A stretch of DNA of 64,000 bases, from NCBI RefSeq assembly GCF_013408145.1, contig NZ_JACBZI010000001.1, forward strand, positions 3,362,001 through 3,426,000, read 5' to 3'. Below are positions 37,736-40,575 of the stretch, in pieces. This DNA is from Nocardioides marinus. Lineage in GTDB: Bacteria > Actinomycetota > Actinomycetes > Propionibacteriales > Nocardioidaceae. Below the pieces are notes generated by a model. The model did no database searches and was not told the DNA's origin. It saw nothing but the letters and a program-made list of their open reading frames with translations. Within the stretch, counting starts at the first letter, position 1. Every line of letters starts with the position of its first letter. The position numbers were made by a program, and so were the translations under genes.

Positions 37736-38362
37736 TCAGCGGGCGGAGATCTCCAGGGTGGCCATGACCTGCCCGATCCACTCCTCGCGCTCGGCCTCGC
37801 CCAGCGACGCCGGAGTGAGGAAGTCGAGCTCGATCGTCCTCTCCCCGGTGGCGTGGATGAAGAAGTCGACGTCGAGCCCGTTGATGCTGGCACCGCGCGC
37901 TCGCGCCATCTCCAGGCCGTCGACGACGACCGGGTCGAGCATCTCCAACGGGCCGGTCGCGAGGCCGCTGTGCCTGTCGAGGTAGCGGATCTCCGCCCTG
38001 GCGTTCTTCATGGCCAGGAGTCCCTCCCGGGAGCTGAGTGCGACGGCGACCGCCTCACCGTCGTCGGTCCGGGTGCCTCCTCCCAGCTGCTGGGGCGTCT
38101 CCTCCGCCTCGGCGTCGGCCCAGATCCCGAAGGCCTCCACCCCGTCGACCAGGCTCGCGTCGAGGGCCTGCGGCGCCGGCTCCACGTCGGCGTAGGTGTC
38201 GATCGGCGACGCGTCCTCGGTCGTCGCACTCGGGGACGTCGTCGCGGCGCCGATCGCGCTGGCCCCGTCGCTCGGGCGGGGGTCGGCCGCGTCGTCACCG
38301 CAGGCGGTGGTGCCGCCGACCAGGAGGGTCAGGGCGGCGAGTCCCGCCAGTCGTCTGCTCAC
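37736..38362 (-). CDS. Putative lipoprotein
   Basis: A 208-aa secreted lipoprotein with signal RRLAGLAALTLLVGGTTAC (lipobox GTTAC), a Ser/Thr/Pro/Asp-rich spacer of about 50 residues and a compact C-terminal domain with RTDDGEAVAVALSSREG, LDVDFFIHATGERTIELDFL and EEWIGQVMATLE. I do not recognise the domain; it has no catalytic motif I can name. GTG 38362 gives a good signal peptide. It stands between the ppsR-ppsA operon and a divergent two-gene operon. Confidence 0.75.
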   Translation of the reverse strand: MSRRLAGLAALTLLVGGTTACGDDAADPRPSDGASAIGAATTSPSATTEDASPIDTYADVEPAPQALDASLVDGVEAFGIWADAEAEETPQQLGGGTRTDDGEAVAVALSSREGLLAMKNARAEIRYLDRHSGLATGPLEMLDPVVVDGLEMARARGASINGLDVDFFIHATGERTIELDFLTPASLGEAEREEWIGQVMATLEISAR

Positions 38363-38549
38363 CCGCCCCTGCTGCCCTTCCGTGCACGTGGCCAAACAGA
38401 GCACGGCACCTCGACGGACGGCCATCCCGATTCACTGGGAGGAGGATTGAGGTCTGCCGCACGTGGGAAGACGCTGGGTCGGGCCTTTACCTTCGAGGCT
38501 CGAGGACTTCCTCAGGACACGACCAGCACACGCTCTCGGGAGGCACGTG

Positions 38550-38951
38550 ATGGTGGCCATCGGGCCGGACGGCACGCCCGTCGACATGGGTGCGATCGCG
38601 CAGCTGCTCCAGGAGCTGCGCATCGACAACGTCGTCATCGGCGACATCATGGCGGCGCTGGCCGACGGTGTGGACCGCGTCGACGGCTTCGAGCCGGCGC
38701 AGGTCCCCGAGCGACGGTTCGGCACCCTGGGCAACGGCGCCGTGCTGGGTCACCACACCGAGCTCGCCCGGCGTGCGGTCCGCGAGGCGATCCTGACGAT
38801 GGTCCACGACCTCCAGCACTACAGCGAGGGCGTCGACACGTTCCGCAAGGGCTTCAACGTGGCCGATCAGCACGCGCAGGAGGACCTCGCCCACATCGCT
38901 GCGGAGGTCGGCAGCGTGCGGTCCGCGACCGACGGAGGTCTCGACCGATGA
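38550..38951 (+). CDS. Unrecognised 133-aa helical protein, WXG100/ESX-like in style
   Basis: Starts at ATG 38550, or GTG 38547, behind GGGAGG. The N-terminal half (MGAIAQLLQELRIDNVVIGD) looks like an amphipathic helix with a short loop. The second half (HTELARRAVREAILTMVHDL, then QHYSEGVDTFRKGFNVADQH) forms long helices with the L-x-x-Y-x-x-x-V-x-x-F spacing seen in WXG100-like secretion partners. No signal peptide, enzymatic motif or nucleic-acid motif. Its TGA overlaps the ATG of the next gene, so the two products are probably made in fixed ratio and may form a heterodimer. The function is unknown. Confidence 0.72.
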   Translation: MVAIGPDGTPVDMGAIAQLLQELRIDNVVIGDIMAALADGVDRVDGFEPAQVPERRFGTLGNGAVLGHHTELARRAVREAILTMVHDLQHYSEGVDTFRKGFNVADQHAQEDLAHIAAEVGSVRSATDGGLDR

Positions 38952-40243
38952 CACGCGGTCCCGAGCGCCTGCGCCTCGACGCCGCGTTGGCCGAGGCCGA
39001 CGAGGCGGTGGTGCGGGCCAACGGCGAGGCCGAGTGGCTGAGCGCGACGTACCGGCTGCGTGACGTGTCCCGCGCCCTGCGGGTCGCGGCCAACTCCGGC
39101 CTGGGCATCGGCGGGCAGACCGGGCCGGCCATGTTCAAGGCGATGCGTCGCTCCGCCGACCACCTCGACGAGCGGATCACCCTGTTCAACGAGGGACGCG
39201 AGGCACTCGGATCGGCCGCCGAGACGATCCGACGGGTCCGTGAGCAACGGGACCGGCTCGACACCGACCCCGAGACCGCCGCGATCGCCGACCCCGGCGA
39301 GTTCCGTGACGACCCGGAGTGGGACGACGAGAAGCGGCTGCGCGAGCAGAGCAGGCACTCCGCGGCGGCCGGCGCGTTCGCCGACCGCGAGGCGCTGCGC
39401 GAGCGGCGGGCCCGCGAGATCGCCGAGGAGTTCGACCGGCGCTACGACGAGCCGATCGCGGTGATGAAGCGCATCCACGGCCTCCCCGACCCCGAGCCGG
39501 AGACGGCGTCGGGTGGCGGCGGTGCCGGCGGCGGTGGTCGGGGCTCGGTGCCCGGCCCGCGCGGCGGCAGCGGCCCCGGGGCCGCAGGACTCCTCGGGGG
39601 CCATCCGCACCCGCCGTACGCCGGTGAGCCGGTCGGTCCCGGCGGCGACGGCTCCGACCCGACCGGGGCCTCGGTCGAGGACCCATCCGGCAGCCCGGAC
39701 GGCTCGACCGCGACCGACCAGCCCTCCGTCCTGACGTCGTCGCCGACGGCCGAGGCCGGCGGGGCCGGCACCGCTGTGGGTGTCGGGCTCGGCGGCGGCG
39801 CACTGCTCGGCGGGCTGGCCAGGAGCGGCGTCCTGCGCGGCCTCACCGGTGGTGCCCTGGTGGGCGGCCAGCAGGTGCGGTCCACCGCGGGGCCCCAGGC
39901 CCGACCGCAGGGCCGACCTCTGGGCCGACCGCTGGGCGGCCTGAGCCGATCGGCGGTCTCCGGCACCCTCGGCCGCAGTGTTGCGGTCGGGGCGCCGGCC
40001 ACGAGCCGGCCGGCGGCGCGAGGTGGCGTGGGGGCCGCCTCGTCCGCCGGTCGCACCCCGTCCTCACGCGGCACCGCGGCGGCCGGGAGCCGGGGCGGCG
40101 CCGGCACGGTGGCCGCCCGAGCCGCCGGCGGCGCCGGCGGCGCCCGCCGCCGTGACCGCGACGGCGCCCCCGACCACGAGCACTACGAGGACGACGGCTC
40201 GGACTGGCTCGACGACGAGGCCGCCCCGCGGGTCCTCGACTGA
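38948..40243 (+). CDS. Unrecognised 431-aa protein: helical N-terminus plus Gly/Ser/Ala-rich C-terminus
   Basis: Residues 1-185 are strongly helical and charged (RLRLDAALAEADEAVVRANG, then MFKAMRRSADHLDERITLFN, ALRERRAREIAEEFDRRYDE), like a WXG100/PPE-type pairing domain. Residues 185-400 are a low-complexity Gly/Pro/Ser/Ala/Arg region with repeats such as GRPLGRPLGGL. The end is acidic with Tyr and Trp (HEHYEDDGSDWLDDEAAP). This shape, including the partner gene with a 4-nt overlap, resembles type VII secretion substrates such as EspB/PPE. However, no ESX core gene is in the window and the exact Y-x-x-x-D/E export motif is not visible. No signal peptide. Confidence 0.72.
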   Translation: MTRGPERLRLDAALAEADEAVVRANGEAEWLSATYRLRDVSRALRVAANSGLGIGGQTGPAMFKAMRRSADHLDERITLFNEGREALGSAAETIRRVREQRDRLDTDPETAAIADPGEFRDDPEWDDEKRLREQSRHSAAAGAFADREALRERRAREIAEEFDRRYDEPIAVMKRIHGLPDPEPETASGGGGAGGGGRGSVPGPRGGSGPGAAGLLGGHPHPPYAGEPVGPGGDGSDPTGASVEDPSGSPDGSTATDQPSVLTSSPTAEAGGAGTAVGVGLGGGALLGGLARSGVLRGLTGGALVGGQQVRSTAGPQARPQGRPLGRPLGGLSRSAVSGTLGRSVAVGAPATSRPAARGGVGAASSAGRTPSSRGTAAAGSRGGAGTVAARAAGGAGGARRRDRDGAPDHEHYEDDGSDWLDDEAAPRVLD

Positions 40244-40287: not shown

Positions 40288-40575
40288 ATGCGGCTCGAGG
40301 TGCGCGGCGAGGTCTTCACCTGGCGGGGCCCCGCGCCCCACCATTTCGTGCGCATCGACGGCGACCCGGCCGAGCAGGTGCAGGAGACCGCGACGGCGGT
40401 GACCTACGGTTGGGGGATGGTCCCCGTGCGCGTGCGGCTCGGGGCGACCACCTGGACGACCTCGTTGTGGCCCAAGGACGGCGGCTACCTCGTGCCGGTG
40501 AAGGCCGAGGTCCGACGACGCGAGGGCGTCGAGGTGGGCGACGTCGTCGACCTCGAGGTCGAGATCGCGCTCTGA
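40288..40575 (+). CDS. DUF1905 family protein
   Basis: A 95-aa beta-rich protein with the DUF1905 pattern: EVFTWRGPAPHHFVRIDGDP, TYGWGMVPVRVRLGATTWTT, LWPKDGGYLVPVKAEVRR and GVEVGDVVDLEVEI. The family forms a small AbrB/double-psi-like barrel; its role is unknown. ATG start; the gene lies alone between the unrecognised operon and the LacI regulator. Confidence 0.88.
   Translation: MRLEVRGEVFTWRGPAPHHFVRIDGDPAEQVQETATAVTYGWGMVPVRVRLGATTWTTSLWPKDGGYLVPVKAEVRRREGVEVGDVVDLEVEIAL

What the first reader, a model, noticed from the sequence alone, without database searches (positions are those of the whole stretch)
38550..40243. Two-gene operon with type VII secretion-like style but no known family
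A 133-aa helical protein and a 431-aa protein with a helical head, long Gly/Pro/Ser/Arg-rich body and acidic Tyr/Trp tail overlap by 4 nt. This layout resembles EspA/EspB or PE/PPE-like pairs. There is no ESX gene in the window, so they would be an orphan substrate pair. They are preceded by a divergent lipoprotein gene that may be part of the same unit.
Basis: inference. Interest (0 to 1): 0.62.

Follow-up and report, generated by a model that had tools for sequence, protein, structure and literature searches.

The report
Type VII secretion substrate pair with lipoprotein
Two overlapping genes and their divergent lipoprotein neighbour in a Nocardioides chromosome form a conserved module of the bacterium's type VII (ESX) protein-export system: in related bacteria the same genes sit inside the export-machine locus, whereas here they lie about 700 kb from it.

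Summary
Observation confirmed: P1 (38550-38951, 133 aa) and P2 (38948-40243, 431 aa) overlap by ATGA, are under purifying selection, and match no Pfam, NCBIfam or PDB entry on their own. Homologues occur as a P1-P2 pair in Nocardioides. Across 150 family genomes the P2 profile co-occurs with EccB (42/46 ESX+ vs 1/104). In five Nocardioides and about ten genomes of other genera the genes lie INSIDE the ESX locus, near esxBA and eccD. The host has one ESX locus, 0.7 Mb away, without P1/P2. P2's head models as a PPE-like helical domain (pLDDT 93); relatives match WXG100/PPE, and ESX-linked ones carry a true WxG. P1 models as a PE-like hairpin ending in the published WXG100 export pattern (102-FNVADQHAQEDL-113). 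The divergent lipoprotein belongs too: full-length homologues in 11/11 genomes with the pair, 0/7 without, and beside eccC where the pair is ESX-embedded. Best explanation: a PE:PPE/EspB-like heterodimer exported by the ESX-4-type machine, with a surface lipoprotein partner. Not formal PE/PPE members (no PE/PPE motifs, no strict YxxxD/E, no EspG detected in host). Secretion and dimerisation are inferred. New variant of a known kind.

The parts
37736..38362 (-). Divergent lipoprotein gene (208 aa, GTG start 38362; lipobox TTA-C, Cys21); conserved third member of the module
   Evidence: homologues divergent to nearly every detached P1-P2 pair; inside the ESX locus beside eccC in four genomes; full-length homologues absent from 7 genomes without the pair
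38363..38549 (.). Divergent intergenic region (187 bp; about 50-220 bp in relatives) that should hold both promoters
   Evidence: no sigma-70-type consensus found there
38550..38951 (+). P1, 133 aa; small helical partner, PE-like hairpin with FG (57-58) at the turn
38853..38888 (+). P1 residues 102-113 FNVADQHAQEDL: WXG100 C-terminal export pattern HxxxD/ExxhxxxH
   Evidence: 24/32 homologues fit at this position, at most 25% at any other offset
38948..40243 (+). P2, 431 aa; PPE/WXG100-like head, disordered body, acidic W tail
38948..39508 (+). P2 head (residues 1-187): helices 5-15, 19-50, 58-106, 127-177; invariant W30; IGGQTG where ESX-linked relatives have WKG/WQG
39764..39820 (+). P2 Gly/Ala/Leu hydrophobic stretch (residues 273-291), at the same place in the full-length homologues
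40184..40240 (+). P2 acidic aromatic C-terminal tail YEDDGSDWLDDEAAPRVLD, conserved also in ESX-linked homologues of other genera

Best explanation
P1 and P2 are a type VII (ESX-4-type, T7SSa) substrate pair of the PE:PPE/EspB kind. P1 (PE-like helical hairpin) and the head of P2 (PPE/WXG100-like helices) are translated together from overlapping genes and fold into one helical heterodimer; P1 carries the C-terminal export pattern read by the EccC ATPase; the ESX machine encoded about 0.7 Mb away exports the folded pair, taking P2's disordered Gly/Pro/Ser/Arg-rich body and acidic W tail to the cell surface or beyond; the divergent lipoprotein sits on the outer face of the membrane and receives, anchors or helps the pair. 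Shown here: gene anatomy, homology, genomic linkage to ESX, co-occurrence, predicted folds, signal-like pattern. Inferred: heterodimer, export, recognition by EccC, the lipoprotein's role and any downstream biological function.
For: Every confirmed P1-like ORF in the first set (21/21) is followed by a P2-like ORF and 28 Nocardioides loci hold both. The P2 profile is in 42/46 EccB+ genomes and 1/104 EccB- (p = 2e-31); within the genus 30/33 vs 0/4 (p = 5e-4); the single exception, G141, does have EccD. In G094, G130, G132, G136 the order is mycP-eccB-eccD-P2-P1-esxA-esxB-eccD'//eccC, with the lipoprotein beside eccC; in G046 (another genus) it is esxB-esxA-P1-subtilase-P2-eccD, and similar spacing is seen in about ten other-genus genomes. 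P2 relatives match Pfam WXG100 (7 members, best 2.8e-7) and PPE (3.4e-5); the P2 profile matches S. aureus EsxA (1.2e-5). P2 head model pLDDT 93, PPE41 TM 0.61/0.65, Z 9.5, 3.1 A over 157 residues. P1 residues 26-106 to PE25 at 1.8 A. Export pattern at P1 102-113 in 24/32 homologues. Full-length lipoprotein in 11/11 genomes with the pair, 0/7 without. Host ESX: EccC, two EccD, two WXG100, EccB, MycP-type subtilase.
Against: The window proteins alone match no T7SS family. The strict YxxxD/E signal is absent (F102 instead of Tyr). P2 itself lacks WxG. BAR domains score as high as PPE in Z for the P2 head, so fold alone is not decisive; a de novo helical protein also scores in the profile search. 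The P1 model is only pLDDT 74. G109, G134 and G140 have ESX but no P2 hit. Co-occurrence is not corrected for phylogeny. No complex was modelled and no secretion data exist.
Confidence: 0.78

Rival explanations
1. P1, P2 and the lipoprotein are accessory parts of the ESX machine (assembly factor, adaptor or envelope component) that work at the membrane and are not exported as cargo.
For: Lipoprotein adjacent to eccC and P1/P2 between esxBA and eccD in several genomes; usually one, at most two pairs per genome; conserved hydrophobic Gly/Ala/Leu stretch in P2.
Against: The module lies away from the ESX locus in most Nocardioides, and three genomes have ESX without it; substrate-type heads (WXG100/PPE) and an export pattern on P1.
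Confidence: 0.13
2. An interbacterial effector with its helper and a lipoprotein immunity protein: P2 the effector, P1 the targeting partner, the lipoprotein protecting the producer.
For: T7SSb effectors use small helical partners, and lipoprotein immunity is known for a T7SSb lipase toxin (own knowledge; the toxin is the subject of PMC10730906, listed, not read here); the lipoprotein tracks the pair and is duplicated at some loci.
Against: P2's C-terminal region is low-complexity with a short conserved tail, no enzyme-like or variable toxin domain; the same lipoprotein family sits beside eccC in ESX-embedded cases.
Confidence: 0.06
3. Not type VII at all: a helical/coiled-coil pair with a disordered tail that only resembles T7SS proteins by composition.
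For: No direct family match; BAR and other helical bundles score equally in Z.
Against: Embedding inside the ESX locus in several genera, conserved tail and WxG in those homologues, and ESX co-occurrence.
Confidence: 0.03

Closest known systems
PE/PPE heterodimers (PE25-PPE41, PE5-PPE4, PE8-PPE15) of mycobacterial ESX-3/ESX-5
   Same: Adjacent genes for a small hairpin protein and a larger protein with a long helical head plus a low-complexity C-terminal part; predicted folds match PE25 (1.8 A) and PPE41 (TM 0.61/0.65)
   Different: No PE or PPE N-terminal motifs, Phe instead of Tyr in the export motif, no EspG detected in the host; a 2025 review calls PE/PPE unique to mycobacteria (PMC12209268 abstract)
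EspB (ESX-1)
   Same: PE- plus PPE-like helices, disordered C-terminal part; export segment EspB 81-YGEVDEEAATAL-92 (PMC3935865) fits the same pattern as P1 102-FNVADQHAQEDL-113; two P2 relatives hit Pfam EspB_PPE weakly (0.0029)
   Different: Two polypeptides, not one; the acidic W tail is not known to me from EspB
EsxA/EsxB WXG100 pairs of ESX-4-type loci
   Same: Bicistronic, helical hairpins, same C-terminal pattern; P2 profile matches S. aureus EsxA; genes lie next to esxBA in relatives
   Different: Much longer P2; window P2 lacks WxG
EspC/EspA pair
   Same: Small plus large helical pair encoded away from the ESX core locus (own knowledge); EspC 87-YSEADEAWRKAI-98 fits the same pattern as P1
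   Different: No EspC or EspA family match for P1/P2 (only two P2 relatives hit EspA_EspE, best 0.065)
T7SS_Rv3446c (TIGR03931), 'type VII secretion-associated protein'
   Same: 16/24 lipoproteins of the module match weakly (best 7.7e-8)
   Different: Below the curated cut-off in the members checked and mostly over the signal/linker part; the model also hits other frames weakly, so only a lead

Membership tests
WXG100 superfamily (P2 head) | W-x-G in the loop between two helices | tested here: not met
   Window P2 has IGGQTG there; ESX-linked relatives in other genera have WKG/WQG at the same column
WXG100 superfamily (P2 head) | Sequence-profile relationship | tested here: met
   Met by relatives and by the family profile, not by the window protein alone: 7/34 members hit PF06013 (best 2.8e-7); profile hits EsxA 1.2e-5
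WXG100/T7SS substrates (P1) | C-terminal HxxxD/ExxhxxxH pattern on the last helix | tested here: met
   102-FNVADQHAQEDL-113; 24/32 homologues at that column, at most 25% elsewhere in P1
T7SSa substrates | Strict YxxxD/E signal | tested here: not met
   F102xxxD106 in P1; the only YxxxD (P2 35-39) is inside a helix and not conserved
PE/PPE family | PE / PPE motifs near the N-terminus | tested here: not met
   Absent from the translations; no Pfam PE/PPE match for the window proteins; 2 P2 relatives hit PPE, best 3.4e-5
PE/PPE family | PE hairpin and PPE helical fold | tested here: inconclusive
   P2 vs PPE41 TM 0.61/0.65, Z 9.5; P1 vs PE25 1.8 A, Z 6.1; BAR and other bundles tie in Z
PE/PPE family | EspG chaperone in the genome | tested here: not met
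   PF14011 not detected in the host at E 0.01; 4/59 Nocardioides pass the cut-off
EspB | PE and PPE parts fused in one chain | tested here: not met
   Two genes
EspA/EspC | EspC or EspA family match | tested here: inconclusive
   No Pfam hit for the window proteins; weak EspA_EspE hits in two P2 relatives
T7SSa (ESX) cargo | ESX machine present in host and linked to the genes | tested here: met
   Host ESX locus; pair embedded in ESX loci of relatives
T7SSa (ESX) cargo | EccC-dependent secretion; physical heterodimer | not testable with these tools
   Needs experiments or complex prediction

The most novel reading that the evidence does not exclude
A three-part ESX module outside the mycolic-acid bacteria: PE:PPE-type heterodimers that are not mycobacterial inventions, each with its own dedicated surface lipoprotein acting as receptor or anchor on the outer face of the membrane, the module found both inside ESX loci and detached from them as a unit.
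Probability: 0.35. Interest if true: 0.72.

Novelty: new variant of a known kind. Interest (0 to 1): 0.58.

Why it matters
The ESX-4-type system is held to be the ancestral branch of actinobacterial type VII secretion and its function had not been determined (PMC4791881). A recognisable cargo pair with a dedicated lipoprotein in environmental bacteria without a mycomembrane gives a simple setting in which to ask what ESX-4 exports and how cargo is received at the surface, and bears on whether PE/PPE-type pairs arose before mycobacteria.

Tried and rejected
Direct Pfam/NCBIfam/PDB sequence searches of the two proteins: nothing usable (Imm32 at 0.066 lies on the acidic tail). Low-scoring hits L017, L023, L024, L025, L028 were rejected as not pair-like. 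TIGR03931 as the lipoprotein's family: kept only as a lead. A strict YxxxD/E signal: not found. An EspG-like gene in the host: not found. Sigma-70-type promoter in the divergent intergenic region: none. Class-wide scan of 394 genomes: P1 family nearly confined to Nocardioidaceae, with three weak or remote hits elsewhere. Tree of P2 heads: detached copies mostly cluster, embedded ones unresolved at the base; consistent with detachment from ESX but not proof. Literature: no description of this pair found. I did not try to force a P1-P2 fusion for complex prediction.

Full report
What is there. P1 (window 38550-38951, 133 aa) and P2 (38948-40243, 431 aa) overlap by ATGA on the + strand; a lipoprotein gene (37736-38362, minus strand) diverges from them across 187 bp. 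Third-codon-position bias of the substitutions and dN/dS of 0.2-0.4 against two relatives show that P1 and P2 are real genes. Alone, neither protein matches Pfam, NCBIfam or a solved structure.

Where it is. The window is part of a 4.11-Mb single-contig genome (3,362,001-3,426,000). The named near relatives are Nocardioides (94% and 72% identical P1), so the host is taken to be a Nocardioides (inference).

Homologues and pairing. A search of 150 genomes of the family with P1 gave matches in the host's genus and a few other genera. After removing hits that were not pair-like, all 21 confirmed P1-like ORFs are followed, by overlap or a few bases, by a P2-like ORF. Profiles built from these (A1, A2) found P2 homologues in 43 and P1 homologues in 38 of 150 genomes; in the loci fetched, 28 hold both genes next to each other. 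P2 homologues share a helical head with an invariant Trp (W30), a VMKxIHGxPDP segment at its end, a Gly/Pro/Ala-rich body with one hydrophobic Gly/Ala/Leu stretch, and an acidic aromatic tail.

Link to ESX. EccB (PF05108) is in 46 of the same 150 genomes, 45 above the curated cut-off. P2 is in 42 of these 46 and in 1 of the 104 others (Fisher p = 2e-31); within the host's genus in 30 of 33 and 0 of 4 (p = 5e-4). These p-values ignore shared ancestry. The one exception, G141, does carry EccD. Of the four EccB-negative Nocardioides three have no EccD and one a partial match. Three Nocardioides (G109, G134, G140) have ESX but no P2 match, so the pair is not an obligatory part of the machine.

The pair inside ESX loci. 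In G094, G130, G132 and G136 the gene order is mycP-eccB-eccD-P2-P1-esxA-esxB-eccD' on one strand and eccC on the other; G142 has the same P2-eccB spacing. In G046, of another genus, the order is esxB-esxA-P1-subtilase-P2-eccD, with eccB further on, and about ten genomes of other genera have P2 3-4 kb from eccB. In G046 and G023 the P2 head carries a genuine WxG (WKG, WQG) where the window protein has GGQTG, the G046 protein matches WXG100 and PPE in Pfam (1.3e-4 and 2.3e-4; below the curated cut-offs), and both end in the same kind of tail (FEDDEAWLDDDEAGPDVI). The host's own ESX locus (EccC, EccD', EsxB, EsxA, EccD, EccB, subtilase; 4,101,565 to the contig end and on to about 2 kb) has none of the three genes. 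So the window's copy is a detached one. A tree of P2 heads groups most detached copies together and leaves the embedded ones unresolved near the base, which fits detachment from ESX but does not prove direction.

The lipoprotein. Homologues of the divergent lipoprotein are found divergent to nearly every detached pair and not directly upstream of the four embedded pairs. A whole-genome search shows why: where the pair is embedded, a full-length homologue lies in the ESX locus beside eccC, either just upstream (G094, G136) or just downstream on the same strand (G130, G132). Full-length matches occur in 11 of 11 genomes with the pair and in 0 of 7 without it; the latter give only partial hits, mostly over the signal-peptide and linker end. 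This is the strongest evidence that it belongs to the module. Weak TIGR03931 (T7SS_Rv3446c) matches cover mostly the signal/linker part and stay below the cut-off where checked, so they are only a lead.

Fold. The P2 head (34 sequences) is predicted at mean pLDDT 93 with helices 5-15, 19-50, 58-106 and 127-177. By TM-score the PPE chains are the best among the rows listed (2g38_B 0.61/0.65; 6uuj_E 0.58/0.66), but eukaryotic BAR domains reach equal or higher Z (PPE41 Z 9.5, 3.1 A over 157 residues), so fold alone does not decide. The P2 profile matches S. aureus EsxA and other WXG100 proteins at 1e-5 to 1e-2, with designed helical proteins in the same range as a warning. P1 as a monomer is predicted at pLDDT 74; its residues 26-106 superpose on PE25 at 1.8 A (Z 6.1), and PE25 and LapA4 (partner of a T7SS LXG protein) are among the matches. 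Low confidence as a monomer is what an obligate partner would give, but that is inference.

Export signal. The strict YxxxD/E motif is absent. The extended WXG100 pattern HxxxD/ExxhxxxH described in PMC3935865 (EspB 81-YGEVDEEAATAL-92, EspC 87-YSEADEAWRKAI-98) is present at P1 102-FNVADQHAQEDL-113: 24 of 32 homologues fit at that column, and no other offset in P1 exceeds 25%. It lies on the last helix, after the hairpin, where such signals lie.

Mechanism. Best reading: P1 and P2 head form a PE:PPE/EspB-like bundle; the P1 C-terminal helix is the signal for EccC; the ESX machine exports the folded pair; the lipoprotein, on the outer face of the membrane, receives or anchors it. Steps beyond anatomy, homology and linkage are inferred. 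The main rival is that the three proteins are non-exported accessory parts of the machine.

Known or new. Type VII substrates with small helical partners are a known kind, and ESX-4 loci are known across actinobacteria including Propionibacteriales (PMC4791881). A 2025 review calls PE/PPE proteins unique to mycobacteria (PMC12209268, abstract). Literature searches found no description of this pair or of the lipoprotein association (the library is incomplete). The module is therefore scored as a new variant of a known kind, of moderate to fairly high interest.

Noticed in passing
L075:11567-12864 (G132); L078:7937-9004 (G178); also G097, G115, G044: EspG-like (PF14011) genes occur in some Nocardioides, in G132 next to a WXG/P2-like frame, and about 14-17 kb from eccB in G132, G097, G115 and G044; four of 59 genomes pass the Pfam cut-off. 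Not found in the host.
   Followed up: partly
G000:C1:2791926-2792447 (L085:6888-7451): The host has a second full-length homologue of the module lipoprotein with no P1/P2 or ESX gene within about 6 kb.
   Followed up: partly
L074:7707-9592 (G000:C1 about 4,087,700-4,089,600): A WXG100-like small ORF next to a 506-aa ORF about 12 kb from eccC in the host; similar neighbours occur beside an EspG-like gene in G178.
   Followed up: no
L003:1168-2013 (G000:C1 about 754,900-755,760): A separate 281-aa protein with a WXG100 domain over the Pfam cut-off, another possible ESX substrate.
   Followed up: no
window 40288-40575: The downstream gene on the same strand is a DUF1905 protein (PF08922, 3.3e-24); no link to the module was seen.
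   Followed up: no
L030, L012 and L022, upstream of P1: Tandem duplicates of the lipoprotein gene lie beside some detached pairs.
   Followed up: partly
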